A stretch of DNA of 23,401 nucleotides from Physocladia obscura (lineage: Eukaryota; Chytridiomycota; Chytridiomycetes; Chytridiales; Chytriomycetaceae). Numbering within the stretch: position 1 is the stretch's first letter; each line of letters begins with the position of its first letter. The DNA lies in contig JADGJH010000257.1 in the NCBI GenBank assembly GCA_027596945.1, forward strand, positions 1 to 23,401, written 5' to 3'. Shown here one piece after another: positions 1 through 23,270 of the stretch. The notes below the pieces were generated by a model. That model saw nothing but the letters and a program-made list of their open reading frames with translations. It did not search any database and was not told the origin of the DNA. A program made the translations under genes and the position numbers.

Positions 1-1450
1 CATATATACAACTTGTATAACATATTTATTTCTAAATCTAATAGTAAGATTGGTCTGTCAATCTTCCCAAACACTTCATCAAGTTGGTTCTATGTCAGAT
101 TGCAATATAAAAATTATATATACTGTTTATGAAAGCTTCAATGAAAATATTCTAACAATCATTTTTAAATACTTGTAATTGTTGACAGCATGTTTCCAAA
201 GCTGTTTCACTGCCATCTTTGTTGAGTTTTCTCTCTGTGACCATGGCAGTGAACTTTGTGCAATTAATTTTGTTGATAGAAAATCTTGAATCATCAAATC
301 TTCGGGGGTTTTTTTTTATACTGCGAATTTTGGTTAGCTATTCTGAAATTAAATTAAATCTTAAGTTCAATTTTAATTTTATTTTTGATTTGCATATTTT
401 CTGATGTAAATATGTAAATTAGAGATTCAATCTAATTTTCTTAAATTATTTAGAATTTTCTCAAGCCTTCTATTATTTTCAAGAACTCAAAAGTCATTCA
501 AGCAATTTCCAACTGCTTTTCAACCATATTAAGCCATATTAGACCATTTTTCTTTTGAAGTGCATTTTATTCTTTTCTTTTTTTTCTTTCTACTCCAAAA
601 ACTATTTAAACCCAAACTCTTTCCTTCATTCTATTATTGGTCTTATTAAATAAAAGAAAGTCTTAATTAAGTATTATATTTCCACTTAAACTCATACTTT
701 TCTGCAACTTACTGGAATCGGCTTGATTTTCACCCTGATTTCAACTTGATTTTCAAGTTCAAAAATGATCATGATGAAAATGAGAGAAAGATATCAGATA
801 TCACTTCAAATCATGTAACTATTGTGGCTGATTGCACATTGATCTGAAGAAAAAAGGTAGCAAAAGCAAGGATAATAAAACTATCACTATTACTGGGACA
901 GCAAACTGACATAGCAAAGTGATCCTTGCAGTATACTTATGAAAGCATTTTATAGGTAGTTTCAATGCATCTGAATCCTGGCAATAGGATGAAATCTAAG
1001 CTGCAGTTGACAGGCCAAACACACCTATTAGTTTGCTCACATACAAGAAACTAACACATAAAAAAGGCAATGGCACATTCAATCTCTTGTTGATAACATT
1101 TTGGGGAAAAAAAAGTGTAGGGTTTTTTAACATAGGTTTTAGGTTATCTTCTGATATTTTCAAGACTCGTACTATCTTCTAATCAAGCCAAAATGATTGG
1201 CACTGAATAATGTACAAATTGAACAGACTTGATTAAATTACCCAATTGGAACAGATCCTGCTGTCTCCAATTTAAATCTTCCATATTAAAAAAATTAAAA
1301 AAGAAGTATAGAACTCATTGAACATGAAAAGCTTCAATAGCATTTATTTTGTAATTATAATGTAGATAAATATTATAATGTCTTTTAAACATATTTTCTT
1401 TTCAACATTGCTAATTTATCACCTTCATCTGAATCCAGCACAAAACCAAA
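1..1450. other. AT-rich spacer, no supported gene
   Basis: The stretch is strongly AT-rich, with homopolymer T and A runs (for example around 308-318 and 578-588). The only ORF near 219-404 looks like a chance reading of T-rich DNA. At about 850-1010 (+) the broken translation carries short pieces (GSKSKDNKTITITGTAN, then KVILAVYL) that recall the central part of pogo/Tigger transposases, but stops and shifts are so frequent that this is only a hint. On the minus strand at about 150-250 a short open piece (MVTERKLNKDGSETALE) is also visible without a recognisable family. Confidence 0.5.
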
Positions 1451-1472
1451 ATATTAAAGATGCAATTTGTGA

Positions 1473-1655
1473 TTTACATTCAATTCCGAGACAGCACCAT
1501 ATGTGATGATGGACTGGCTCGCAACAGTTCTTGGAAAGAACGCAGAATGCGAACGGAGATATATTAGAGATATACTTCGAATTAAAATGTATAGAATGCG
1601 ATTAAAAAATACTGCTGCTATATGGGACCATAGAAGCTTAGGCAACTTTGAATAA
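1473..1655 (+). CDS. small exon-like ORF, unknown
   Basis: An open stretch of 60 codons follows an in-frame TGA at 1470-1472 and ends with TAA at 1653-1655. Its base composition is clearly richer in G and C than the flanking spacer, which suggests coding. The first in-frame ATG codons are at 1506 and 1509, giving a basic protein of about 49 residues beginning MMDWLATVLGKNAE. It could be a small gene or the last exon of a gene whose upstream exons I could not identify. No family is recognised. An antisense ORF covers 1454-1666, but its composition looks less natural. Confidence 0.25.
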   Translation, partial: FTFNSETAPYVMMDWLATVLGKNAECERRYIRDILRIKMYRMRLKNTAAIWDHRSLGNFE

Positions 1656-1812
1656 TATTTATACACTGACTTTGAGTTTCATATTGTATTAATCACGTTT
1701 TCTTCCAATGACTCATCTTAGTTTCTTTATAAGGTGTGTGGCTATATGAGTCATTTCGAGACAACCTATAAAATCGAACTAGATAAAACATAGGTCTAAA
1801 AGTCATCTGAAA

Positions 1813-3348
1813 ATGCTTCACCTCTGCAGTAAAGTCGTAAAACCTCTCAAACTGCAACAAACTCGCACTCTTCTTACACGCAAAGGGTCGCCAAAAGAAG
1901 TATTATTTGTTTGACCGATTCGGAATGACTCATTGACAGTGTTTTGACAGGTTTCTGTGGATGAAGCTGTCAAAGCAATCAAGTCAAATGATAGAGTATT
2001 TATTCACGGCGTTACTGCCACGCCTGCGACTTTACTTGCTGCCCTCGAAAAGCGCATTCCAGAACTCACCGGAATTGAATTTTGCCACCTTCACCTTGAT
2101 AAACCAAACCCGTAAGCATTTATTTACCTGATATTGCCACGTATCTTGGAATTCATTTATGGCAATTAATAATGGTAGATGCTCGCAAGAAAAGTACAGG
2201 GCAAACGCGTTTACAAACAACTTTTTTATCGGCGCAAACCAACGTAAACAAGTCGCGCAAGGTCTCTCGTCATACACTTCCACATTCCTCAGTGAAGTGC
2301 CACGAATTATTCGCGAAGGACCTCTTACGCCCGATGTGGCGCTGATCAATGTTTCTCTGCCTGATAAGCACGGATATGTTTCTCTGGGGACAGAGGTTGC
2401 AACTGCTTTTCCCGCTGTTCAGATGGCCAAGACTGTTATTGCGCAGATAAATCCTCACGTCCCTCGCACACATGGAGACTCGTTCGTGCATATCGACGCA
2501 CTCGATTACGTCTGTCATGTTAACGAGCCGTTACCAGAAATTCCAGACGCAAAAATAGGTGATGTTGAGGGAAAGATTGGCAAAATTATCGCCGATCTTG
2601 TTCCTGATGGCGCGACGCTACAAATGGGTATTGGAGCAATTCCAAACGCAGTCTTGGATGGCTTAAAAGGGCACAAGAATCTTGGAATACACACAGAGGT
2701 GAATTTATCACTATAGAAGGTGCTACTTATATTTAAAAAAAGAACCATCAATAGATGTTTCAAGAAGGAGTTATTCCACTGATGGAAACTGGAGTTGTAA
2801 ACAACTCTCAGAAAAAGTTTTTACCTGGGAAAATTCTAACCTCTTTCATCATTGGCACTCGCCGCCTCTATGACTTTGTTGACGACAATCCAAGTGTTGT
2901 ATTTTATGATGCAAGTATCGCAAACAACCCAGTAATTATTGCGCAAAACCCCAAGGTCACAGCAATCAACGCCGCTATTGAGGTAGACTTGACAGGGCAA
3001 GTTTGTGCCGACTCTGTGGGTCATCGTATGATCAGTGGAGTTGGAGGACAGGTTGATTTTGAGCGTGGCGCTGCTCTTTCAGAAGGCGGATTGCCTATTA
3101 TTTGTTTGCCAAGCACGACAAAAAGCGGTGCCTCGCGTATTGTGACTGCCATTAAAAGTGGAGGTGGAATTATCACTTCTCGACCACACGTGCATTATGT
3201 TATTACAGAATATGGATACGCGAATTTGTTTGGAAAAAATTTGCAACAGAGGGCGAAAGCTTTGATAGGTATTGCGCATCCAAGACATCGTGAACAGCTT
3301 GAACGGGATGCATTCGAGTTTTTGGGTCTCAGCGCTTGGAGGGACTAG
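1813..3348 (+). CDS. acyl-CoA hydrolase/transferase (4-hydroxybutyrate/acetate CoA-transferase family), four exons
   Basis: A class I CoA-transferase of the acetyl-CoA hydrolase/4-hydroxybutyrate CoA-transferase family, which moves CoA between carboxylic acids. Proposed exons are 1813-1899, 1951-2111, 2179-2698 and 2755-3348, joined by GT-AG introns of 51, 67 and 56 nt; all phases agree and give 453 residues, close to the roughly 440 of the shorter family branch (yeast Ach1 is longer). The first 25 residues are rich in K, R, L and T without acids, as in mitochondrial presequences. Family motifs in order: RVFIHGVTATP, FFIGANQR, the HGYVSLG loop, PRTHGDS, GIGAIPNAV, then GIHTEMF, whose Glu256 matches the catalytic glutamate known in the family and is the last codon of exon 3. 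The C-terminal ITEYGYANL motif follows. The reading frame looks intact. Substrate preference cannot be read from the sequence. Confidence 0.93.
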
Positions 3349-3583
3349 CGATTAAAGAGACTAATTGTTTCTTTTCTTCTTCTCTGAAGCATATTTGATT
3401 TTGTTAATCTTGTTGGTAGACGATCAAAAAAAAAATTATCAAAATCAAATACTATCATTCTCATGAAAATTTCGCCAAGAGATTTTAAAATCTGATGGTT
3501 GTAATTTTTTTCTTTATTTTCTTGGCAAAATTGGAATATTTTTTTTGTTACTTATGTCATAACCCCAAACACGTTTTTTATAT
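3349..3583. other. intergenic spacer between convergent genes
   Basis: This short T/A-rich stretch lies between the stop codons of two convergent genes. It must hold both 3' ends and polyadenylation regions, but I see no clear signal beyond poly-A and T-rich tracts. Confidence 0.4.
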
Positions 3584-4018
3584 TCAGAGATCAAATCTGC
3601 CAAATTTTCGAAGCATGCATTCCCAAAGCACATACAACAATCCAATAAGTATCATCGAAAATCCGAAAGTTATAACTACGATTGCACAAACTTTCCATAT
3701 AAAATACAAATACAATTCGGTTTTAATCCAGTCACTTTGAAATTGTCGACCGTAAAAGCTAATTACAAGTGGGTGTAGAACAATCAATAGCAGAACGATT
3801 GCAAGATATATGAATTTCAATTGCTTCACAAAAACGAAGAGATTCTTTAGTTTGCTTATTGGCGCTGGTGGGTTCGTGAATAACTGAATTTTAGATTCAT
3901 TTTGTTTCAAAGATGAGTCTGCCCGAACAAAATTAGATGGCGCAATTTCGATGGTGATGGTGACAGAAGAATTAGAATGTATAGCTGTAAGCTTGTGGAA
4001 ATCAGCGAGCGCATTCAT
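3584..4018 (-). CDS. putative two-helix membrane protein
   Basis: An uninterrupted ORF encodes 144 residues from the ATG at 4018. Residues 1-60 are polar and rich in Ser, Asn and Thr. Two strongly hydrophobic segments follow at about 69-90 (YLAIVLLLIVLHPLVISF) and about 104-131 (IWKVCAIVVITFGFSMILIG), with a basic C-terminus (MLRKFGRFDL). This is the layout of a small helical hairpin integral membrane protein. No family is recognised. It converges on the CoA-transferase gene. The opposite strand has a shorter ORF at 3495-3740 that looks like a shadow. Composition is AT-rich, so a spurious ORF cannot be excluded, but two well-formed helices in one frame favour a gene. Confidence 0.5.
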   Translation of the reverse strand: MNALADFHKLTAIHSNSSVTITIEIAPSNFVRADSSLKQNESKIQLFTNPPAPISKLKNLFVFVKQLKFIYLAIVLLLIVLHPLVISFYGRQFQSDWIKTELYLYFIWKVCAIVVITFGFSMILIGLLYVLWECMLRKFGRFDL

Positions 4019-4129
4019 TGAGCTTTAGAACCTGTGTTTTTGCCAAGATTACTTTTCAGAAAATTTTTAAAGACAAGGGGGTATTTATTTTCAAAAAAAT
4101 ACTTGAAATCACGACGCACGCCATTTTAT

Positions 4130-4240
4130 AGATGTTTTATGCTCAAGAAATTGCGACAAATATCCTTGAGCAAGTTGACAATATTCTTCTCTGGAGATTC
4201 AAAAGCAATATCCAAATTCTTAGAAGGAAATGTTTCTAGA
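4130..4240 (-). pseudogene. degenerate copy of the 3' end of the adjacent methyltransferase gene
   Basis: On the plus strand, 4171-4197 and 4621-4647 match at 25 of 27 positions, and the similarity continues more weakly to both sides. Read on the minus strand, the copy gives REEYCQLAQGYLSQFLEHK against REEYRELVQGSYAEWPKHK in the functional gene, followed by stops and frame changes. It therefore corresponds to the last ~30-40 codons of a methyltransferase paralog, in the same orientation as the intact gene. No upstream domain of the copy could be traced. A tandem duplication followed by decay is the simplest reading. Confidence 0.7.
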
Positions 4241-4540
4241 ACTTTTCTGAATTTTCATCTAAATTTGAGAAGACATGTCGAAAATGGGGCATCTAAAAAT
4301 ATGGATATATTTTTTGATAAGCAGCACGGTAGATATAAAACTATATTTTCAGTTTTTGTTTTTTTCGTTTCTAAACAATGAGTTCAACGCTAACATCGAA
4401 TTATGAAATAATTTAATTTTTGCCTAAAAAATAGCAGATTTTCATCGTATTTTTCCTCTTATTGACGAAAAGTTAAAACATTTATTGCAATTTTGTTTTG
4501 GGCAGCAAACCCAAATAAGTCATAGGAATTTTCAATACCG

Positions 4541-5779
4541 TCATTTCTTCACTTGAAAATATAAAGCACGAGCTTGCACAAATGATTTATGCTTAGGCCA
4601 TTCCGCGTAAGAGCCTTGGACAAGTTCACGATATTCTTCTCTGGAGAGCCTCATTGCTTTGTGCATCCAATCTTCTAATCCGAGGAACACTGCCTTGACA
4701 TCTGCGCCTGCAAGAATTCCCATATTCGAGCCCCACCCAATTGATGCATGAATCATTTTGTTTTGTTGATTTTCGATACTAGCTGCCACTTGCTTAACAT
4801 AAAACGGCAGGTTTGTCGCGGCGTAGCAATCCAAGCCACGCCTATGCATTCCGTCAAATGCCGCAGTTGTCAAAGTTTGAGAGTATGGTCCTGCATTGTA
4901 AATCACAATATCTGCTTCAACTAATTCGATCCAGCCGCCAGGCTTTGTGACGCGAATAAGTTCTTTAAGTGCCTCTGGAAATTTTTGGCGAGGCATACCG
5001 AGTACCAACAAACGTTGGTGAACAAAATCAAAAGTATTATCCTCATCTATCAGAAACGTTTTTTAAAAAAAAAGGTAGAAAATTATAAACCAAACCAAAC
5101 AGTATAGAATAAAAAAGATTCATAAATTAGTGGAAGATTTTACATGGGAGGGTTTCCAAAACGTTTCCGAATTTGAGAGAAACTCCTTCCTCAGCGAATT
5201 GTTCAACCAAAGTTTTGGAAATGTCAACTCCATGATATTCAGCGTCAGGGCTGATCTTTTGCAGTTGCTTCAACCAAAACCCCTTTGCGCATCCAACATC
5301 TAGAATTTTGTACCCAGGGAGTTTGATCAGATCGTTGACAATGGGGCAAACAATATCTCTACAAAAATTAAAAAATATGAGAAAAAACATTAAAAAACCG
5401 TCGCCACAAACCCTCCAAAAGCAGCACGATAAATATAATGCTGCATTTCCAATCGATCTTGCTCTGTGGCGTCATTGGGCAACATATAATCACTAGTTGG
5501 AAGTGAATGATACTCCCGCATTTCCGGTTCCCAGGATTTCGGATCATTTGGATTCCACGTTTTTGCCACTGAAGTGTTTACATGCGCTGGTTTAAGCTCG
5601 TACTTTTTTGATGACCCGGTTTGTGATTTCGGGGACTGCGGAATCGAACCACTGGCAGCATTGCCATTTGGGCTGTCCAATTTTTCTTGTGTGGAATCAT
5701 AATCTTGCGATGCGTGAGTTGGTGACAGTGGATCGTCGGCAAGCTTCTTCTTGATAACTTTGGATAGGTAAGGTCCCAT
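4541..5779 (-). CDS. class I SAM-dependent methyltransferase (LaeA-like), three exons
   Basis: A Rossmann-fold methyltransferase using S-adenosylmethionine. Exons on the minus strand are 5779-5412, 5358-5144 and 5046-4541; the introns (53 and 97 nt, GT-AG) restore a continuous frame of 362 residues. The first ~75 residues are low complexity (Ser, Gln, Pro, Asn), typical of the fungal LaeA-like group. Then comes RAAFGG joined by splicing to DIVCPIV, motif I ILDVGCAKG (about 141-149), the acidic end of strand 2 in HGVDIS (Asp168), and the strand 4 region LPYEDNTFDFVHQRLL, which is assembled across the second intron. ELIRVTKPGGWIELVEAD is the typical strand 5 element. All core motifs are present, so it should be active; the substrate is unknown. 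A decayed partial copy lies just downstream. Confidence 0.9.
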
Positions 5780-6171
5780 TTTTCAACACAAGTCAAGCAA
5801 AATTGTCAAGCAAATTTTATTCTGTTGGCGAGGGGGTAAATCAATTTTGGTAATTACCTGTCTATTATGGAAATTTGCTCTAAAATTGTGTATTAGAAAA
5901 GAAGATTAGACGGAAAAACTATCGGTTGCCGTGAATTTTCCATAACTAGTTATTTGTCGTTATTCTCGTTGTTTTTGATGAACTCATGGCAGATTTTCGG
6001 CTGTTTGTATCAACCTATTAAAAATACTAATTAATAGTCGGCGGTTATTTTTACTGTTTTTCGGTCAGTTTTCCGACAAATTAAATTCAGCAGTGTTTTC
6101 TTTTGAAAATTGTCAAATTGAGTTGGATGGTTTTCAATAGAAACGTGGTAAAAAACTAATGAAATTTCGAG
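5780..6171. other. spacer between divergent units
   Basis: This AT-rich interval upstream of the minus-strand methyltransferase should carry its promoter. I see no distinct TATA box. An ATG at 5986 followed by a possible 5' splice site at 6007 could form a 7-codon first exon that joins in frame to the exon at 6172; this is weakly supported. Confidence 0.3.
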
Positions 6172-6354
6172 GATTACATCCCAACTGGTCGTAAAATAGT
6201 TGAGACGTTGGAGTTGGAGAAGCAGCGCAGCGGAATTGTTGAGGTTGATCATCGAGTCGCAACTTTGCGCTCTCACCTTGACGCCATCAACGCCTTTCGA
6301 GCATTTCAACCATACCGTGACAATATGGCGTGTTTTGCAGCAGCCAAAGTGTAG
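6172..6354 (+). pseudogene. isolated exon paralogous to the last exon of the minus-strand gene at 7.3-8.1 kb
   Basis: After an AG at 6170-6171 the plus strand is open for 60 codons and ends with TAG at 6352-6354. Its core VETLELEKQRSGIVEVDHRV aligns with VETLTLEMERRGINQVDFRI encoded by the last exon of the minus-strand gene (7492-7295): 11 of 20 residues are identical. The next ~20 residues keep the same helical, charged pattern, and both begin with GRK just before. Nothing resembling the rest of that gene is found upstream, so this is probably a fragment left by an inverted duplication. It could also be a very small two-exon gene of about 67 residues if the ATG at 5986 is used. The function of the family is unknown. 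Confidence 0.55.
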
Positions 6355-6492
6355 TGACAAGAAAGACGACGATGTTTTGCAAGTTGGCAATTTTTCGCAG
6401 AAATTTTCATCGTTACGAAAACCAAAAAGACAAAATATTTTAAAGGAACGAAAACTTTTCACAATTTTTTCTTTCGACTAAAGCTTCCTTTT

Positions 6493-7149
6493 TCAGACAG
6501 AATATCTGTGTGCAAACCAAATAGGCTTGGGAGACCAGTCGAAATCAACCAACAAATCCAGTTCAATAGCTGAGATTGTGTCATGATTATGAAACGGCGC
6601 ATCAGCAGGCATTTCTCTCCAGAAGGACGGATACAAGTACTCAGAAGTTGGCAAATTTTGAGCTTCATCAGTCAAAAACCACTTTTGAATAGCTTTCATA
6701 TTCCGACATATTGCAGTGAAAGTAGCTGGAACTTCTTTCATTCTTTGAAATTCGTTGACAAAAAGATATACGCGTTTATAGAGATAGTACGATGATTGTT
6801 TCAAGTTGAACTCGGCTTGAATATAGTGAAGAAAGTCGGAATATTGACTACACTAGTTGTTGCAGTAGTTTCTACTTCTTCTTCAGCTTCGTCGTCGTCC
6901 ATGTTCGTTAATCTACGAATCAACGCGGTAGCGTCGTCTGGAGAACTTCTACTCGGAGAAGAATCTTGTCCCATCGTTGCTTATTTCATCTAGGGCGCGA
7001 GATGGTGGAAGAGCGTAAACTGCTTCTAAAATCAGCTTAACGCCAGCTACTGGGATATGTTGCAGTTCGCGCTCAAAATCTTCCTGAGACATCGCAACGG
7101 TATCTTTCATCCACTTGCCAAACGCGTCCCGGAGTGGGTGAACTGGCAT
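6493..7149 (-). pseudogene. cyclin-like protein gene with broken or unresolved frame
   Basis: Three overlapping coding pieces in different frames run along the minus strand. The first, from the ATG at 7149, begins MPVHPLRDAFGKWMKDTVAM and is clearly protein-like. The second, around 6974-6870, is acidic (ATALIRRLTNMDDDEAEEE). The third, about 6860-6493, begins SDFLHYIQAEFNLKQSSYYL and ends with IELDLLVDFDWSP and a stop. The third piece has the helix pattern of a PHO80/PCL-type cyclin box, ending in the usual 'E..FL..LDF' helix, but this is a pattern judgement only. No convincing intron connects the pieces: the only GT-AG candidate between the second and third would be 23 nt. Either it is a pseudogene with two frameshifts, or introns or sequencing errors are hidden here. 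Confidence 0.4.
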
Positions 7150-7294
7150 CTTATTTTTTGGAACAAAGGAATATTCTGACCAGTCACATTCCGAGATTTT
7201 TTACCACGATTGCAAATTTCGAAAAGAAGAAACCCGTGTTCTCTAAAATATAAAACATAATCTTTATTTGCACTACAAACAAATCCGAATCTTC

Positions 7295-8147
7295 TCAATG
7301 TCCATTCTTTTTCGCTTTCAATTTGTCCATGCTGTCTTGAAATGCTTGTGAGTTTCGAAACCGGCGAATATTGTCCAAGTAGTCCCGGATAATGAGCTGG
7401 GTCACAATTCGAAAGTCAACTTGATTGATACCACGCCTCTCCATCTCCAAAGTCAACGTTTCAACAGTTGCGAAAACCTTGCGACCCGCAGCCTGAATTA
7501 AATAATTTAGAAGCCCAAAACATATTTAAGAACAAATTATTTTACCTCCTTCATGTCGTTTACTCGTTGATGTGTAATCACGCAATGTTCGTTGCGATAC
7601 TCGCCACTAACTCCAATAACAATGCCATTAATTACGCGGTCAACACCCCAGTTGTCACAAGTCAACTCCATTCCCGACATTTCATCAACTCCATTCCCGA
7701 CATTTCATCAACCAAATTGCCACTTTCGTTCCCATTGAGTCGACATAGGCGCTGGAATTCAGGGAGCCCACCATCAGGACCCCAAAATCTGATGTCCGGA
7801 AACACAAAGTTCCGGTCAACAGGACCTTCGCGCCTGGATTTGTACTGTTGAGTTTTTGCTTCCGATGACATACTCACCCACTTCTTCTCAATGGATTTCT
7901 CCCACTCTTTCGACAACATTCTCGGCTCCCCATCCCCGTTTCTTCGTCGAAACGCCGCATCTCCTTCCGCATAGTTTCCAGCCAGAATTTCGCGTAACAA
8001 TTCGTCCGTACGTTTCTCCGACAACGAATTCGAGAGGCGGTTGAAAAGAAGGACCTTTGGCGGGAGGCAGTGCAGGACAGCAGATTTATCCAATCCGGTT
8101 TCCATCCACCGAGAATCAGCAGAAGAGACACAGACGTACTGTCGAAT
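7295..8147 (-). CDS. uncharacterised two-exon (or more) gene, frame interrupted by a 23-bp tandem duplication
   Basis: The main exon on the minus strand is about 8147-7546, joined by a GT-AG intron (7545-7493) to a last exon 7492-7295 that ends with TGA. The protein likely starts at the ATG at 8105 (METGLDKSAVLHCLPPKVLL); residues include a charged middle part, then FVFPDIRFWGPDGG and a helical C-terminal domain (VETLTLEMERRGINQVDFRI). The frame is broken at 7666-7711, where a 23-bp unit occurs twice head to tail; with only one unit the frame would run on through WGVDRVINGIVIGVSGEYR into the last exon. A possible in-frame 33-nt intron (GTGAGT...CAACAG) lies near 7882-7850. Two GT-AG-bounded segments upstream (8450-8333 and 8275-8216) do not join in phase and may be 5' UTR exons. 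No family is recognised. A paralogous exon is present inverted at 6172. Confidence 0.5.
7666..7711. repeat. 23-bp perfect tandem duplication
   Basis: The 23-base unit at 7666-7688 is repeated exactly at 7689-7711. Because 23 is not a multiple of three it shifts the frame of the minus-strand exon that contains it. Confidence 0.95.
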
Positions 8148-8215
8148 CTGTCACGGTTATTTAAAATGAGTTTTTTGTAAGTCATAAATAAAACAGAGAA
8201 AACAAGCCAAAGAAC

Positions 8216-9176
8216 CTGTAACACTCAACGAAGGAGTCACAGCCAATAATGACGAGTGGCGTGGTATCGAGGAGTCTTGATGAATGTTATGGTGAGTCGC
8301 ACAACAGGTGTATCAATCAATAAAATAAAAACCTGACGATACTCTCGCGTCAGTCGAGACGATGAAAGAGGATGAGGATGATGATGATTGATACGATGGG
8401 CAGGATGGCGACCATGTCGTCAGAGATGAGGGTGTGTTGGTCAAGGTCATTTTTTGGATGATGATTTTTGAAAAGAGAAAATCGGACGTCTTCCCTCAAA
8501 TACTATCTGTCAATCCTATCTGTCATAGAACGTTGAACATTCACTCTCGCTGAAGAATACAAGCGACTATTCCTCACTAAAATCAATCACCGTATCTGTC
8601 ACTTTATTTCAGTGATAATAAAACACTTCATTCAAAGTTGAGTTGATTTGTCACAAAATTGAATTTTCTTAGTAAACACACACTCAATCCATCACAATGC
8701 TCATCACTGTTTTTGAGTGAACAATCCTACAGTTTTCAAAGTTGAGAGATTCCACCACTTACCGCAGTGGCGCGACTCACAATTTAAAATTTTATTAGAA
8801 GATTCTCACAGAAAAGTGTGAGTGGGCGTGTGCATGGCGGGGGTGTATGGTCAGCATAATTTTCAAGATAAAATTTTTTTGACTATATTTTTTGTTTTAT
8901 TATCATGAATAGAGAATGCTTATTCTCTTTATTCTTTTTTTCGTGAAAAGGATGCTCAGGGGATTTCAAACAATCAAAATGATTATTTGTCAGCCTAACA
9001 TAAATTATTGATGAACATTGATAAACACCTCATTGAAAGAACAGCGAAAGACAATATACCAGTACTTAAGTAATAACTGTTTTTACCGTTTTGATCAAGT
9101 TTCCAAGGGGGCAAAACTTTCTTCGCGGTGGATTTTTGTGACAAAATCGAACAAATCTCGTCAGTCAATCAACTTG
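8216..9176. other. divergent intergenic region with possible 5' exons and short repeats
   Basis: The minus strand shows two segments bounded by splice-like sites, 8450-8333 and 8275-8216, that could be 5' exons of the gene ending at 7295; the first would encode a Ser-rich stretch if translated from the ATG at 8450. Upstream, the 9-mer tatctgtca occurs three times (8504-8512, 8517-8525, 8593-8601). From about 8850 the DNA becomes T-rich, as expected of a promoter for the plus-strand gene that follows. Confidence 0.35.
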
Positions 9177-9756: not shown

Positions 9757-11549
9757 ATGCTTCCATATTTAGAAGCACGCCAGATTCATGGCACTTCGAA
9801 TTTAAGTAATTATAGTATCGAACGCGCATCCAGATGCAGTTCCAAAAGGCAGGAAACGCAACCAAAAATAATGAAATCGAAATCCTCTGCTGACTCGCTC
9901 GCCACCCTGTTTGACTTTGATTTTTCATTGCGCGGAACTGAAACTGAATCGAATCCAATCTCTTCGCGTAAAACGCGCGGTTTTATTCCGATTCCACCCA
10001 CAATCACAACAAATAGCCATTCGCATCGACACATCAAAACATTATTTGCGGTTAATGCAAAGCCCAATGCTGAGCAAACTGAAATGAATAAAATCTTTGC
10101 TTCAGTGTGGCTCGATTCCGAACGCGTTCTCGTAGGAACTAAATGCAACCGACTTATTGTATTGGATGTTGCAAAGGGGCGTATCGCATCGGAAATTCCG
10201 CCAATCACGGGCTATTGGGAAGGAAATTTATTTGTTGAAGGTTGCACGTTTGAAAATAATAATTCCGTATAGTTGAGAAATTTATTTTAAATATTTCCTG
10301 ACTTGTTTTTAATTTTAATTTTAATATTAATTACAAGTCCCGCCGAAAATTTTTCTGGAACACTTCAACATTCTGCAACTTCACCGTGTGCAGGTATACA
10401 TAAATTTTTCCTTTCTGATATTTAATTTGCGAAATTAACAGAACATTATTAGGAATCCATAGTATTGCGGTCAATCCCTCAAAAACTCTCCTTGCCGTTG
10501 CTGCAGGTGCTCCTTTGGCGCCAATTCAAATCTACACGCTTCCTCACCTCGCTGCGTATGCTGTGCTCCGCCGTCCTCACAATGATATGGTATTTTCCGT
10601 CGAATTTTACTCTGATTTTTTGCTCGTAAGTGGCGGGCGCGATACCCGTCTTTGTTTATGGAACCTCGCTGACCCAAACCGCGTTTCTGGCGTCCTCCGC
10701 GGCGCATGCAATATCGACGTCAGTGTTATTGATCCTGTTCCGGGTGAATTCAATGAAAGCTTGAACAAATCTACATCAGTTTTGTCAGTGGCATATCTTG
10801 GCCGACTTTTCGCAGGAGTTTTTCCAAGAGTCGGAGCGAGTGCATCTGACCAGCAACAGCATGCAACCGTAACCAGTAGCGAGATTTCTATACAGCCACA
10901 GCATGGTGTCGTCGGTGTTGTGAAAGTTGAAGAAAAAATACGCGATTTGAAAGTCATCAATGGAAGTGCTGCAGATGCGAAAGTTGCAGCTTTAACCACC
11001 CACGGCGTTGTAAAACTCTTTGATATTTACCAGCATAGCTACTCTTCGCCAGTTTCCGAGTACAATCACCTTGGATTCAATCCGAAGTCAGCAGATGTGA
11101 CTTTGTATAACCGCAAAGAGACGGTGTGTTTACAGGTTTCTGAAAATTCTGGTATTATTGTGGTCGGGTCGCAGTCTTATATTTCGCTTATTGACCCACG
11201 GCAACGCGAGCTAGTTACGTCAATTAAAAGCATGGATGTGGACTGGGGTGTGCGTAGCCTTGCATTTGATGCACAAGGTAGGTTGACGGTCGGTGGAGGG
11301 ATGGGGCGCATTTCGTTTTTGGACATGCGAATGCATGAATACTTAGCTTGCGCAGTGAGACCAAACGGAAAAAAAGATGAACTTGCTCAAAAGTGGTTGA
11401 ATATGGATGCAGATGGAAGATTTTCATCGAGATTTAATCGTGACGCGATTTATACGCTCGCTTACTGCCCGTTTGGTGTGAGGTTATTTGCGGGTGGCGG
11501 TCCTTTGCAATTGAGTTTAAAAGGATGTTATGCAGGGATTTGGGAGTGA
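9757..11549 (+). CDS. DCAF12-like WD40-repeat protein (CUL4-DDB1 substrate receptor family), three exons
   Basis: WD40 beta-propeller protein related to DDB1- and CUL4-associated factor 12, a substrate receptor of the CRL4 ubiquitin ligase in animals. Exons are 9757-10271, 10338-10393 and 10453-11549 with GT-AG introns of 66 and 59 nt; the phases agree and give 555 residues. DCAF12 landmarks appear in the right order: a basic N-terminus, KIFASVWLDSERVLVGTKCN (about 112-131), SPCAGIHSIAVNPSKTLLAV assembled across the second intron, VSGGRDTRLCLWNLADPNRV, VVGSQSYISLIDPRQRE, and the C-terminal LFAGGGPLQLSLKGCYAGIW. A Gln/Ser-rich insert of about 50 residues interrupts the propeller in the middle. 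The TGA stop directly follows the conserved AGIW-E end, so TGA is a normal stop in this genome. The start may instead be the ATG at 9871. Role as a ligase adaptor in this organism is inferred from homology. Confidence 0.9.
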
Positions 11550-12018
11550 TAAATTGTTTGGTGGATTTAGAATGAGCTTTAATTTAAAATAACACATTAA
11601 GCAACAAAGCGGAGCCATATTTGTATACTAGAAAATATTCCAAGGTCACTGAAACAGGCAAAATTATAACAGAATATCTATTTCAAGAAAAAATCGGCTG
11701 GTGCAACCAGACGTTTGCCAAGTCGGCAATATCTGATAAAGTAAAAAGGCAGTGAAAATCTGAAAATTTAAATATATCAGTATTCTATAAACTGTATTGT
11801 TTTCTGTTTCTCCTTTTAAATACTAATTTATATCTTTGTACCAGTTCCTTACAATACCAGATCTGAATCTGAAAGCGACGATTGAGAATTGTTGTTTTCA
11901 TTTTTCTTTCTTTTTACGATTGTTGCATTTTTTACGGCAGTTGCAATTTTTTTGGTTCCAACGGAAAAAAAAAAACTGAATTTAATTCAAAAACTTATTT
12001 TATTTTATAATACTAAAC
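11550..12018. other. AT-rich spacer before the polymerase-helicase element
   Basis: No gene is supported. A small T-rich ORF at 11889-12071 looks like chance. The left boundary of the decayed element should lie in this spacer, but I found no inverted or direct repeat that matches the right flank (16236-16450). Confidence 0.4.
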
Positions 12019-12034
12019 ATGTTCTCATTGGAAA

Positions 12035-12638
12035 GTGTACGTCCTTTCTACCAAAGTATACAGCTATTTGAACCAAAAAATTATGCCCTCACTTACAAAG
12101 GGCTGTTCATCCCTTGTAAGAGAAGAAGTAGAACAGTTACAAACCAAATCAAGCTTCCAAGAAATGGTAATGAACATAAGATGTTGCAATCACACATTTC
12201 AAACCTTATTTGAAACAATAAAGCAACAATTATTGGAAACTATATTCTAAAGTTGGACAACACGTTCATCAAGAAAACTGACAAGACAATGAAACAACTC
12301 CAATCAGGGGGTATGGAAGTTGTTCATAATGTCTTGAAGAGAAAGAGGCCAGATTCACCTGAATCATCAAGAAAGGAGCAATGAATGGAGGTTTTAATGA
12401 AAAGAAAGAGGTCAAATGTCCCGTGGATGCTCAAAAAGAAAGACACATTGACTATTCATTGTACTATCTTCCAACTCTCTTTTCACAGAGGTTGATTGTA
12501 ACTTATGAATTCAAGTATGTGATTCATTATGGAGATTACGATTACAATGACAGCAACACAGGCATCATTCGAGATATTCCTGACCATTTGATTGAACAAC
12601 ACCTCGATACTATGACAAAAGAATATGCTGAGAGATAA
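12035..12638 (+). pseudogene. broken N-terminal region of the polyprotein
   Basis: Short open pieces in changing frames precede the polymerase: one beginning at 12083 (MPSLTKGCSSLVREEVEQLQ), one at about 12250-12381 rich in Lys/Arg (VLKRKRPDSPESS), and one at 12381-12638 that is in the same frame as the polymerase and is rich in Tyr and Asp. They are probably the start of the polyprotein, with a lesion around 12248-12440, but no domain is recognised. The last piece ends in a TAA at 12636-12638, after which the same frame continues open. Confidence 0.45.
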
Positions 12639-14310
12639 CCTTATGACTGTGATATTTTGGAGATTGATTACACAACTCAACCCATTCCACATCAACAAGT
12701 AGCTTTATTAGAACAGAGAATGTTTGGGACTATTTTAAACTACCACCATTTAAACCTTGCACCAAACTTTGCCAATGAAAACATTTGTGTTTATCAACAC
12801 TTAGTAAACATGTATTCAAAACACATTCAAGGATTAACTTTCGATGGTTTAAAAGGTATCTTTGAAGAAGGCGAGATTGATACTGGAGTAACAACAAATC
12901 AAGTTGTCCAATTCTGTGAAAAGTACAGCATTAGCTTGTATGCAATGGATTTAGAGTTTGAGATTTTCTGCTGACATGTCCCGAAAGTCAGAAATCACCA
13001 TGTCCCTTGCCTGATTTATATTGTTGCCAACAATCACATGTATTCTGTATTAGAAGAAGAGCTGAGAAGAAGTATTGTTGCATCTGAGAGAACAAAAGGC
13101 ACAGACAATTCAAGAGTTTTCAAGAGCAAGGCGAAGCTGGTAAATACATTTGACGGAACAATCGAGACTCTCTTAAATGTTCCATATGTAACTCTCAGTC
13201 AACTTGAAAACTGTAATGTTGTTTATACAAATAGAGAAGACCTTTCAGATTTGGTGGTATATTTGGCACAAACTGAACAAACTGTATACAAGACATGAGG
13301 TAATGGTGGGCATATAATTAGAATTGAATACAAGAACCAAGTCAACAAGCACTATCAAGAGTCCTTACTTATGTCCAAGGCATTAACGATTCCTTTTAGA
13401 AACCAAAATCTCATCAGTTTGGTACTGGAGGAATTCCAAATATACAAGGGTGATGACATAATAGAGAGCACATTCAATCGAGTGACTCAATCAGTATTCT
13501 TCAACTGCGTCAAGGGAGCCATTGTCGATACATTTTATGAACCATCAGTATCGGCTGATTTAAAGAGTTTTGATATTCAAAAATGCCATACAGCATGTTT
13601 GACAATAAAGAATGAAATGCCATAGTCTGTTTTCAGCATTTTTGATGAAGTCAAACCATACTCTGGTAAAGTGAGAACTGGATTCTATTATGTTGAGACA
13701 GAGAATACGTTTCCACTAAGAGGCACTCGTTGGTATTCAGCACCCATACTACGATATTGTCAAATGATTGGTGTGTCCCTCAACATTGTGTATGAAATCA
13801 TTCCAAGTAAGACTCTCAAAGCAGACTACTTCAATGATTTTGTAAAGAGGATATATGACAAGAGTGGCAATAATGTAAAGCTGATGATTAACTGTTTTGT
13901 AGGATGTTGAACAAAAGAAGTGATAAAAAGCAAACAGATAGGTTTACAATGAGTTTGAATGATGCAGTTTGATACTATTTCTTGAACGACAATACAGTGT
14001 ATTCATGCATTTCACAAGAGCCAAAGCTATTCACATTTCCATCAAGAATGATACACCAAAGCATTTCAATACAATTCCAATATACTGGCAAGTTATCAAT
14101 AACGGTAATATGATGCTGCATCAATTGGCAATGAAAATGGGTGGTAGAATAGTTCGATTGAAAACTGATTGTGTGGTAGTTGAAGATGGCAATGATGTTG
14201 AATGTCAACCAGGTATTGGTAATTATTGAGTCAAAGCATTACCACAACACTATAAAGTATCTGAGCCATTCAAGAGTACATATGCGTTTCAGCTTGAAAT
14301 AAAGACAGGA
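12639..14310 (+). pseudogene. family B DNA polymerase (organellar/viral type) relic
   Basis: This part of the reading frame has the layout of protein-primed or viral family B polymerases. An upstream domain (ICVYQHLVNMYSKHIQGLTF ... GVTTNQVVQFCEKYSISLYA ... IYIVANNHMYSV) resembles the N-terminal region seen in polymerase-like proteins of many eukaryotic repeats. A motif A-like segment is FDIQKCHTACL (about 13570-13602), motif B-like KLMINCFVG (about 13878-13904), and motif C-like RLKTDCVVVED (about 14155-14187), in which the usual DTD is replaced by TD-C. In-frame stops are at 12972 (TGA), 13296 (TGA), 13623 (TAG), 13908 (TGA), 13970 (TGA) and 14227 (TGA). The frame shifts near 13915, again near 14035, and returns to the first frame near 14310. 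The protein cannot be made from this copy. Family assignment rests on motif pattern and order. Confidence 0.6.
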
Positions 14311-15320
14311 TTCCAACAGATAATAGATTAGAGTGTCAGTTATTAACTGGAAAGGCAGGTACGGGGAAATCAACTGAAGTCAGAGAAACCATTAAAGAAT
14401 TACAGCCTGGGTCATTTGTACTATTAGCAAGTACAAACAAGGCAGCAAGACTAATTAATGGTCAGACAGTCCACCATTTCTTTCATATTGACAACAATGA
14501 CAAGTGTAACTTGAAGGAAGCAGGAAAGGCAGCCAGCAGATATCAGTACATTTTCATTGATGAAGTTGGCATGTTGAGAGCAGAGATTTATGAAATCTTT
14601 TATTATGTGAAGCTGCAAACAAAGGTCAAGTTTGTATTAGTTGGTGACTATAAACAGTTGGGAGGAGTAGAGAAAAACAACAGAAAATATGATTACCTTA
14701 ATACACAGGCTTTAAAGGAACTGGTTGATTACAGTATAACAGAGCTCTTGATTAATCACCATTCAGACAACTCGGTGACTGTGCTATTTGACATTGTGCA
14801 CACATTGAATCCAAGCGACTTTGACAATAAGCACATGTTTACTTGAGTAAATCTAGCGTACACTCATAACAAGAGAAAACAAATCAATGAAATCATGATG
14901 CAGCGAGATAAACTAAAGAAGAAGAAAATGATTAGAATAGAAGCAAATAAAGATGACCCGAACTCACAAGATGTTCTATTGATGGTTGGCACTCCAGTGA
15001 TTTCGAATAGAAACTACAAGAAACTCGGACTTGTCAACAGTGCAACATTTGTAGTCAAAAGGATTGAGCCATTGTTGATGCTGGAAGATACAGTAACCAA
15101 CAACAAGATTGAGATTACTGTTGAGCAATTTCGGTTATATTTCTGGGTCAACTATTGTTTGACAGTCCATCGAGTTCAAGGAGATTCAATTAGAGAGCCA
15201 TTCACTATCCATGAATGGAGTAGAATGGCCAAAGATATGCAATACACAGCGATAAGTCAGACCACTAAAAAGGAATATATAAATGTAGTTGATGACCACG
15301 TAAAACATAGAGAAACAAGA
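14310..15320 (+). pseudogene. superfamily 1 (Pif1/RecD-like) DNA helicase relic
   Basis: A clear SF1 helicase: Walker A LLTGKAGTGKST (about 14341-14376), motif Ia-like VLLASTNKAARLINGQTVHH, Walker B YIFIDEVGM, motif III FVLVGDYKQLGG, and the late motif LTVHRVQGDSI (about 15156-15188) equivalent to the T-H-K-x-Q-G box of Pif1/RecD2 proteins. The final motif reads YTAISQTT (about 15244-15267), where the family has an arginine (A-L/I-S-R); here it is Gln, which would remove the arginine finger. One TGA at 14844-14846 interrupts the frame. The helicase follows the polymerase in the same overall frame, so the two were probably one protein. Confidence 0.85.
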
Positions 15321-15668
15321 GAGACTGATTTTGACAAAATGAAACAGATGAAGAAGAGAGAGCAAGACATGAAAGATGAACTCAAACGAAAGAGAATTGA
15401 GGCTGTTCAAGTAATCAACTACATTATTCGAAAGGGATGTTCTGATGAGTTTAGTTTGAAACATACTTTTGTTAAGAGACGAGAGTTGTTCAAGCATCTT
15501 GGTATTTTTGATGAGGTAGTGCAAAGAGGATATGAGATAGACCACATTAAGCCGCGATGCCAGCATACCACAGATGATGACTTCAAGAACATTAATGCTC
15601 ATTGGAATCTGCGACTGATTTCAAGAAAAGAAAACTACGAGTTGGGTAAAAAATTGCAATTGTTGTAA
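15321..15668 (+). pseudogene. HNH endonuclease domain at the C-terminus of the polyprotein
   Basis: After a charged, probably coiled-coil linker (KMKQMKKREQDMKDELKRKR) the frame ends in a compact HNH nuclease: YEIDHIKPRCQHTTDDDFKN followed by NAHWNLRLISRKEN. The Asp-His pair, the central Asn-x-His-Trp-Asn and the last Asn of the beta-beta-alpha-metal fold are all present. The stop is TAA at 15666-15668. The domain itself is undamaged from 14895 onward, although the full polyprotein is not. HNH domains fused to replication proteins occur in some viruses and mobile elements; here the role is unknown. Confidence 0.75.
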
Positions 15669-15740
15669 AAAATTGTGACTTTTGATTGGTCAAAAAATTC
15701 CATTTTCGTAAACTTTTTTAAATATTTAAAATCTTTTGCT

Positions 15741-15750
15741 TATATATAAA
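15741..15750 (+). promoter_or_regulatory. TATA-like element upstream of the RING/SIAH ORF
   Basis: The sequence tatatataaa ends three bases before the ATG at 15753. An ATTGG (inverted CCAAT) motif lies at about 15684. The TATA is unusually close to the ATG, so either the 5' leader is minimal or the true start is the second ATG at 15777. Confidence 0.35.
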
Positions 15751-15752
15751 CA

Positions 15753-16235
15753 ATGGAACCAATAGTAAACTACTCAATGAATATAAAGCTGTCAGACTTG
15801 ACCTGTTGTATCTGCCTTGAAAACATCAATTTCTCAATTATTCAGTGTGCAAATGGGTCAAACCCGCACTTTGTTTGTATCCAGTGTTGCCATCAATTGG
15901 GACAAAAGTGCCTGCAATGTAAGACTGAATCATTATTTCATAATAAACAGTTGCAAGTTACTTTAACCCCCTTTTTAGAATCATGCACCAATGAAAACTG
16001 TAAAATGCAAGTATTGAAGTGGAATCTCAATGAGCATGTAGAAGACTGTGACTACAAGAAACACAAGTGCTTCATGTGTCAAAGAAAAGTGCTGTCAAGA
16101 AAAACATTGCAGAGTCACTTTGAAACAACCAGGTATCGAAAAATGAGGATTTTGCATTGTCTAATTAGTACTCCAACTTTTCTTTTGCTTTCAACCACAT
16201 CTTTTTTTAGCCAATGTGAAATGATAAATGTTTGA
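15753..16235 (+). CDS. RING / SIAH-type zinc-finger protein (probable E3 ubiquitin ligase)
   Basis: An intact ORF of 160 residues. A RING finger has the ligand order C18-x2-C21, C32, H39-x2-C42, C45, C53-x2-C56. A SIAH/SINA-like double zinc finger follows: C78-x4-C83 ... H95-x3-C99, then C106-x2-C109 ... H122. This is the RING plus SIAH arrangement of E3 ligases that recruit E2 enzymes. The substrate-binding (MATH/TRAF-like) domain that SIAH proteins carry next is absent: after about residue 128 the protein becomes hydrophobic and unrelated, so the 3' part is probably lost or replaced. It lies 84 bp after the polyprotein stop, on the same strand and with similar base composition, and is most likely part of the same element. 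Confidence 0.75.
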   Translation: MEPIVNYSMNIKLSDLTCCICLENINFSIIQCANGSNPHFVCIQCCHQLGQKCLQCKTESLFHNKQLQVTLTPFLESCTNENCKMQVLKWNLNEHVEDCDYKKHKCFMCQRKVLSRKTLQSHFETTRYRKMRILHCLISTPTFLLLSTTSFFSQCEMINV

Positions 16236-22224: not shown

Positions 22225-23270
22225 ATTGCATTTCGAAATTTGCTACAAGACTTACTGCCAAAAGAATTCAAGCAGGCTATTTGAATGGACATTCAATTGT
22301 TTAAATTATTTGTTGCACTTATTGCTAATCATTCAGTTTTTCAGAACAACAGCCACAATCCTCAAATGGACATATGGATACAAGCAGCAACTGCGTTAAA
22401 ATGGATTGGTAATAATGTAACAGGGGTATCTGTCGTTAAAGTTAGTGTTTTGCTCAGAATTGCTGTCGAAACGGTGATTATATTCTGTCGTCGGGTTGTC
22501 ACAGCAACCTTATCATTGAAGTTGAAATACGTGCCTTGGCTGTCTCAAGCTGCAAGACATGCTTTGTCAAAAAAAATGAATGACTTGTATGGGCTGAAAG
22601 GTCTCATTGGGATTGTTGATGGCACAGACATAGTTCTGTATGAACAGCCATGTGTGGATCCTGAAACATACTGGACTTGAAAGCACAGATACGCTCTCAA
22701 CTGCCAGCTGGTTGTTCATCCTCTTGATGGTTGCGTTATCTACCATCTACTTGGTTGGCCAGGCTCAATGCATGACAACAATGTCTTCAGCAGGTCGAAA
22801 CTGATCCAGCAACCAGACTTGTTTCTGGGACACAGCAAATTTTTGCTTGGTGATTCTGCATATGTCCTGACAACTCAAATGCTGACACCGTACAAGGGTG
22901 CTCCCTTGCAGATTCTGGAAAACAAAGAATTTAATTGCCAGATTTCTTCAGTAAGAGTCAAGGTTGAACATACTATTGGTGTGTTGAAGGACAGATGGGG
23001 CAGCTTAAAGCATTTACATTGCAGTACCCAGAAGGAGAAGATTTGCAGCATATCAACAACTGGATTCTCACATCTATTATCTTTCATAATATGCTCATTA
23101 CTTTTTGTGATACGTGGGAAGAAGTGGAGGAAGATGATGATGATACAACTGATGAGTCACACCTGGGGAATCAACAACAAGCATCTCCAATCAGTGAAAA
23201 ATTTTGGTCTCAGATCAAGCAAACTGTTTTGAGCCATATTAGTTGTGTTTTTAGTCAGTTGTGTTTTTAG
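22225..23270 (+). mobile_element. PIF/Harbinger (HARBI1-like) DDE transposase, damaged
   Basis: A DDE transposase of the PIF/Harbinger superfamily, which cuts and pastes DNA with 3-bp target duplications. The N-terminal helical part (FQNNSHNPQMDIWIQAATAL) has the usual pattern. Catalytic residues: first Asp in GIVDGTD (codon at 22618), second Asp in LLGDSAY (22852), Glu in VKVEHTIGVLKDRWG (22966), giving spacing of about 38 residues between the last two. The GSMHDNNVF and LTPYK elements are present. The C-terminal NWILTSIIFHNMLI helix is in another frame. Lesions: TGA at 22282 just before ATGGACATT, TGA at 22678, and a one-base shift at about 23000-23020. No terminal inverted repeats were found within the window, and no Myb-like partner gene was seen. 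Confidence 0.9.

What the first reader, a model, noticed from the sequence alone, without database searches (positions are those of the whole stretch)
12035..16235. Decayed element encoding a PolB-SF1 helicase-HNH polyprotein plus a RING/SIAH protein
One reading frame links a family B polymerase, a Pif1/RecD-like helicase and an HNH nuclease, with a separate RING/SIAH zinc-finger ORF immediately downstream. I know no standard eukaryotic transposon class with this gene set: Polintons have integrase and capsid genes, Helitrons have Rep-helicase, and fungal linear plasmids have PolB plus an RNA polymerase. It may be a relic of a giant-virus-like or undescribed self-replicating element in fungal genomes.
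Basis: partly seen in the sequence, partly recalled or inferred. Interest (0 to 1): 0.82.

Follow-up and report, generated by a model that had tools for sequence, protein, structure and literature searches.

The report
Dead copy of fungal transpoviron-like element
This stretch is one broken copy of a very common mobile element in a chytrid fungus that carries its own DNA-copying enzyme but seems to lack virus shell genes, and it most resembles the small linear DNA parasites (transpovirons) so far known from giant viruses.

Summary
Largely confirmed, with corrections. Window 11926/11966-16128 is a truncated, decayed copy of a high-copy element. Its main gene is a fusion of a protein-primed-type family B polymerase palm, a Pif1-like SF1 helicase and a weakly supported HNH end. 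A RING/TRAF zinc-finger gene follows. The helicase-HNH piece has 111 matches in the same genome. Host: very probably Physocladia obscura; relatives occur in Obelidium and Chytriomyces. Two copies run from terminal inverted repeat to terminal inverted repeat (7.15 and 8.70 kb). They carry a variable left module, the fusion gene, the zinc-finger gene and a conserved antisense gene. Ends are sharp, at a run of C, without target-site duplication of 3 bp or more (0 of 6 paired ends). No capsid, packaging ATPase or integrase was recognised, and the shorter copy has little room for them. Shorter derivatives exist (0.6-4.9 kb). The fusion is not new: it is the published 'Tlr1-like helicase' of polinton-like viruses and transpovirons. 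What looks new is a capsid-less family of this kind in fungal nuclear genomes at high copy. I read it as a transpoviron-like, protein-primed selfish element; episomal replication and integration by host end joining are inferred. Verdict: new variant of a known kind.

The parts
11926..16128 (+). Truncated copy of the element's core (fusion gene plus start of zinc-finger gene); neither terminal repeat retained
   Evidence: blastn against 20 fetched copies: in 14 of 20 the match begins between 11926 and 11997 (mostly 11964-11970; 11926 with L010), in 10 of 20 it ends exactly at 16128 and in none later, while other copies continue on the right
12019..15668 (+). Broken gene B: vOTU-like region, pPolB palm, SF1 helicase, HNH-like end
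   Evidence: tblastn with the 1144-aa Obelidium relative P0002: five segments, three frames, 65-88% identity; in-frame stops include 12636, 12972, 13296, 13623, 13908, 14844
12696..13103 (+). vOTU-like protease region by position
   Evidence: maps P0002 residues 150-285; Cys180 and His263 are kept in 26 of 26 aligned rows that cover them. The name vOTU comes from PMC11071308; the fold of this part was not tested alone
13560..14274 (+). pPolB palm region
14310..15302 (+). SF1 (Pif1/RecD-like) helicase
15480..15650 (+). HNH-like C-terminal domain (weak)
   Evidence: PF13395 E 0.036, below cut-off; motif EIDHI/V near the C terminus in 5 of 33 rows scanned: P0002-P0005 and the C373 ORF
15753..16128 (+). 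RING/TRAF zinc-finger gene, cut off at its 3' side
   Evidence: same position as L025:2277-3077 (-), which matches zf-TRAF PF02176 E 6.3e-9 and weaker RING models; blastn to other copies stops at 16128
11927..11952 (+). Left arm of a 26-nt inverted repeat flanking gene B (right arm 15648-15673, 88%)
   Evidence: in L010 the corresponding pair is 31 nt, 97%
8562..8843 (-). Solo terminal inverted repeat of the same family (terminus near 8843, body towards lower coordinates): a second element fragment
   Evidence: blastn to terminal repeats of L033, L034, L035 and C365; sequence
7292..8384 (-). Left-module sequence of that second fragment, like that of L010
   Evidence: blastn 69-76% in three stretches; tblastn of L010:1817-2761 59% over 122 aa, E 2e-39
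6496..6852 (-). Possible left-module gene of the second fragment (distant)
   Evidence: 21-25% over 63-70 aa to ORFs upstream of gene B in L028, L026, L013, L027, E 3e-5 to 3e-4

Best explanation
The window holds a dead, end-truncated copy of a capsid-less, terminal-inverted-repeat element of the nuclear genome of a chytrid (very probably Physocladia obscura). Shown: 111 matches of one gene piece on 77 contigs, sharp ends at a run of C, a fixed order fusion gene - RING/TRAF gene - antisense gene D, a variable left module, TIR-only and shortened derivatives, no target-site duplication of 3 bp or more, and the same gene pair in two other genera. Inferred mechanism: the pPolB palm starts replication at the ends of a linear copy with a protein primer, perhaps sliding back on the terminal C-run. 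The vOTU region would release the primer part, the fused helicase would unwind, and linear copies would be joined into chromosomes by host end joining, possibly at breaks made by the HNH domain. TIR-only derivatives would be copied in trans. The host appears to silence copies, which lose CpG. It works like a transpoviron, with no helper shown.
Against: No terminal protein, episome, transcript or integration event was seen. A short TSD could have been lost in old copies (C307 shows a 2-bp match), and an empty site for C1148 was not found. HNH support is weak. Capsid absence rests on ORF sizes: PF04451 rang nowhere, so its 0 says nothing, and whether PF04665 sees polinton-like ATPases was not checked. 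Left modules hold unnamed ORFs up to 315 aa, some of which might be enzymes of mobility. A PF03175 polymerase match lies on C275, which also holds a gene B piece; not followed up. Gene D had no match at E <= 0.001 in the one library searched (viral models). The four short units could be other elements sharing the ends.
Confidence: 0.7

Rival explanations
1. They are remnants of capsid-bearing polinton-like proviruses that lost their structural genes after integration.
For: The fusion protein is that of polinton-like viruses (PMC11071308, passages), and a capsid-bearing polinton-like virus is reported in the chytrid Spizellomyces (PMC7805220, passages).
Against: In the shorter TIR-to-TIR copy (C307, 7154 bp) the fusion gene, RING and gene D span 1331-6798, and the longest unassigned ORF is 157 aa; in C365 it is 136 aa (ORFs of 80 aa or more). 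Proteins of three genera point to the fusion gene and gene D staying together (contigs of equal length). PF04665 gave 0.
Confidence: 0.15
2. An ordinary cut-and-paste DNA transposon that captured a viral replication gene; an unrecognised transposase lies in the variable left module.
For: TIRs, a TIR-only unit and dozens of terminal-repeat places look like a TIR transposon. Left modules hold unassigned ORFs.
Against: No TSD of 3 bp or more in 6 pairs. Left modules are shared only within subgroups. No transposase family above cut-off in the element ORFs given to Pfam.
Confidence: 0.09
3. A cytoplasmic or mitochondrial linear plasmid family that leaks into the nucleus.
For: A protein-primed-type polymerase, inverted ends and no TSD would fit end-joined linear plasmids. 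A separate PF03175 polymerase with nine TAG codons sits on C443.
Against: Long frames of gene B are open in the standard code in some copies (for example 831 aa on C373) and annotated in other genera. No RNA polymerase was recognised in the ORFs scanned. The domain set is Tlr1-like.
Confidence: 0.06

Closest known systems
Tlr1-like helicase (pPolB-SF1 helicase) of polinton-like viruses and Tlr1
   Same: vOTU-like region, palm, SF1 helicase, nuclease at the C terminus (HNH or GIY-YIG in the literature: PMC11071308 passages)
   Different: Published polinton-like viruses that carry it have capsid genes and larger genomes; here no capsid gene was recognised and the whole element is 7-9 kb
Transpovirons (linear episomes of mimiviruses; pltv of a pacmanvirus)
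   Same: About 7 kb (PMC11788076 passages), terminal inverted repeats (380-520 nt in PMC7031253, passages), helicase fusion, zinc-finger gene, a conserved gene of unknown function, no capsid
   Different: Found integrated in a fungal nuclear genome, no giant virus known, RING/TRAF instead of the published zinc-finger protein, no tandem array 3' of the helicase in three loci tested
'Polintons' of Rhizophagus and polinton-like viruses of Spizellomyces and Allomyces (PMC7805220, passages)
   Same: Fungal hosts, related replication genes, integration
   Different: The Spizellomyces and Allomyces elements have capsid genes; three TSDs of 5-7 bp are reported among elements of the fungus and oomycetes; the Rhizophagus element had no detected capsid but belonged to a group defined by pPolB plus integrase
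Linear plasmids of fungi (recalled; named in PMC11071308 passages)
   Same: Protein-primed type polymerase and inverted ends
   Different: No separate RNA polymerase seen in the ORFs scanned; helicase fused; nuclear, many copies

Membership tests
Tlr1-like helicase (protein family) | pPolB palm with catalytic motifs fused N-terminally to an SF1 helicase | tested here: met
   motifs 28-29 of 29; phi29-type fold 305-678 and Pif1-type fold 693-1023 in one model
Tlr1-like helicase (protein family) | vOTU region with catalytic Cys and His before the palm | tested here: inconclusive
   Cys and His kept in 26 of 26, but the fold of this part was not searched alone
Tlr1-like helicase (protein family) | C-terminal HNH or GIY-YIG nuclease (in some members) | tested here: inconclusive
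   HNH below Pfam cut-off; EIDHI/V motif at the C terminus in 5 of 33 rows
Tlr1-like helicase (protein family) | branches with named PLV or transpoviron sequences in a tree | not tested
   no named PLV or transpoviron sequence was obtained; the tree holds chytrid and unnamed or metagenome proteins only
Transpoviron | about 7 kb with terminal inverted repeats | tested here: met
   7154 and 8696 bp TIR to TIR
Transpoviron | no capsid genes | tested here: inconclusive
   longest unassigned ORF 157 aa in C307 and 136 aa in C365, but 315 aa in C951; no usable capsid model
Transpoviron | replicates as an episome with a giant virus | not testable with these tools
   no cell or virus data
Transpoviron | tandem repeat 3' of the helicase | tested here: not met
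   no such array near the end of the fusion gene in 3 of 3 loci given (L010, L015, L027)
Polinton / polinton-like virus | packaging ATPase | tested here: not met
   PF04665: 0 in the genome, rang in 2 of 14 control genomes; its reach to polinton-like ATPases was not checked
Polinton / polinton-like virus | major capsid gene | tested here: inconclusive
   PF04451 rang nowhere, controls included; little room in C307
Polinton / polinton-like virus | RVE integrase or tyrosine recombinase | tested here: inconclusive
   none above cut-off in the element ORFs given to Pfam, but left modules hold unassigned ORFs

The most novel reading that the evidence does not exclude
A distinct lineage of capsid-less, transpoviron-like elements has settled in chytrid nuclear genomes. 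It multiplies by protein-primed copying of linear molecules that are joined into chromosomes without an integrase or target duplication. It keeps a swappable cargo bay beside one end (an OTU-protease gene in one copy) and a RING/TRAF gene, and spawns TIR-only satellites. It may be the resident, nuclear counterpart of the helper-dependent transpovirons, or a satellite of an unseen chytrid DNA virus.
Probability: 0.35. Interest if true: 0.8.

Novelty: new variant of a known kind. Interest (0 to 1): 0.62.

Why it matters
In the passages I read, transpovirons appear only as episomes of giant viruses. A nuclear, high-copy fungal family with the same kind of replication protein, ends and size would show how polinton-like viruses can turn into capsid-less chromosomal transposons. 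It would give fungi in which protein-primed transposition and integration without an integrase can be tested. It would also explain part of the unannotated repeats and 'hypothetical proteins' of these chytrid genomes. Eight topical library searches listed no paper that by title or abstract start describes it; their lists are capped (4-30 papers shown per search), subscription journals are mostly absent and only some preprints are held.

Tried and rejected
A library look-up by accession H6WBE3 found 0 papers. IMG/VR scan: 87 confirmed loci, 80 kept; palm and vOTU profiles built here matched 0 of 80 at E <= 1e-3, so I took these as other helicases and dropped them. Fold search of gene D against viral models: nothing at E <= 0.001. 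The PF04451 capsid search rang nowhere and is not used. PF03175 gave four places (C443 twice, C275, C33), not followed up; C275 also holds a gene B piece. Joined flanks of C1148 found no empty site. Paper PMC5499653 is not held. The left-module protein P0035 was not searched in the protein database, as the last search went to gene D. Giant-virus relic: not supported, but only PF04665 and PF04451 were tried.

Full report
What is in the window. The helicase piece (14298-14843) is unmistakable in Pfam; the HNH end is weak and below cut-off; no polymerase model matches. The gene starts at 12019 and is broken: the 1144-aa Obelidium relative P0002 aligns in five segments and three frames at 65-88% identity, with at least six in-frame stops. 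The RING-type ORF begins at 15753. Of 20 fetched copies, 14 begin to match between 11926 and 11997 (mostly 11964-11970; 11926 with L010 alone). Ten of 20 stop exactly at 16128 and none later, while other copies run on. So the window copy is cut off inside the RING gene and carries neither terminal repeat.

The host. The Physocladia obscura protein P0034, from a contig of 12712 bases, matches contig C897 of the same length at 99.7% over 399 residues. P0050's contig length equals that of C1032. I take the genome to be P. obscura; the tools gave no name for it.

The family. A single helicase-HNH piece has 111 matches on 77 contigs (contigs counted by hand; some copies give several matches), gene D 151, and the terminal repeat 40 places (all 40 scored of 75 candidates). 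Unrelated flanks meet a run of C. Among 34 distinct ends with a run of 5 or more C, the runs are 5-11 long and the base before is A in 29; ends with shorter runs exist and were not counted. Six contigs have both ends: C365 8696 bp, C307 7154 bp, C2 4918, C1210 2711, C59 1248 and C1148 627. None has a target-site duplication of 3 bp or more; C307 has a 2-bp match. The 627-bp unit is two 158-nt arms, 94% complementary, around 310 nt.

Gene order. From left to right: TIR; a variable left module; the fusion gene; the RING/TRAF gene; gene D on the other strand; TIR. Left modules are shared only within subgroups. One ORF on C1152 is an OTU-like protease (PF02338, E 1.5e-9), with a 43% relative in L021 that Pfam did not flag. 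A stretch of the Chytriomyces confervae protein P0035 (within residues 289-572) recurs in L019 and L023, with a short match in L021. The C951 left module has ORFs of 209 and 315 aa without a Pfam family above cut-off. In C307 the longest unassigned ORF is 157 aa and in C365 136 aa.

Relatives. Hits that bear an organism's name are chytrids: Chytriomyces cf. hyalinus, Obelidium, Physocladia and C. confervae; one is labelled viral metagenome and the others bear no organism (27 proteins, 13). In a FastTree of 31 of 33 proteins (P0031 and P0033 dropped for low coverage) the four chytrid sequences are one clade (support 1.0), inside a larger clade with P0003-P0005 (1.0); two Physocladia lineages each pair with another genus (1.0 each). 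By motif, 16 of 33 rows carry an HNH before the palm and 5 of 33 (P0002-P0005, C373 ORF) near the C terminus. Gene D homologues share contig lengths with fusion-gene proteins in three species; the same contig is inferred from equal length.

Decay and silencing. CpG observed/expected is 0.35 in the window copy and 0.17-0.74 in eight others, against 0.84-1.23 in three other window stretches. This fits methylation and deamination, which I infer.

Mechanism. Shown: repeats, ends, order, conserved catalytic residues, shortened units. Inferred: protein-primed copying of a linear form (terminal C-runs fit sliding-back priming, recalled from protein-primed replicons), release of the primer part by the vOTU region, end joining into chromosomes, and copying of TIR-only units in trans. 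The A before the C-run may be part of the terminus or a site preference.

Comparison. It works like a transpoviron in size, ends, core protein and apparent lack of capsid. It is not filed as one: association with a giant virus cannot be tested, no tandem array 3' of the helicase was found in three loci, and a tree with named transpovirons is missing. As to polinton-like viruses, the packaging ATPase was not found (PF04665) and the capsid could not be tested properly. Eight topical library searches, with capped lists, showed no description of such an element in fungi.

Noticed in passing
window 6496-8843 (-): A second, separate fragment of the same element family: a solo terminal repeat and left-module sequence, opposite in strand to the main copy and on the other side of a DCAF12-like WD40 gene.
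   Followed up: partly
window 10419-11546: DCAF12-like WD40 gene piece (PF23760 E 3.8e-35) between the two element fragments.
   Followed up: no
window 22285-23270: ORFs that by eye look like a Harbinger-type DDE transposase; Pfam gave no family above cut-off for the first piece.
   Followed up: no
G000 C443:15007-16198 (-): PF03175 DNA polymerase matches with nine TAG codons in frame, suggesting a mitochondrial linear plasmid or its nuclear copy (TAG as sense in chytrid mitochondria is recalled).
   Followed up: no
L010 2988-5798 versus Obelidium P0002: 88% protein identity of the element protein across two genera, while the other lineage is 77% to Chytriomyces: possible horizontal transfer or rate differences; no host-gene yardstick was run.
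   Followed up: no
L023 near 9793 and L032 near 1848: A variant terminus with CCGTGGTCGCGCCCTGTGC before the same kind of inner motif: another subfamily of ends.
   Followed up: no
window 11927-11952 and 15648-15673; L010 2938-2968 and 6672-6702: Inverted repeat closely flanking the fusion gene, not the element ends; function unknown.
   Followed up: no
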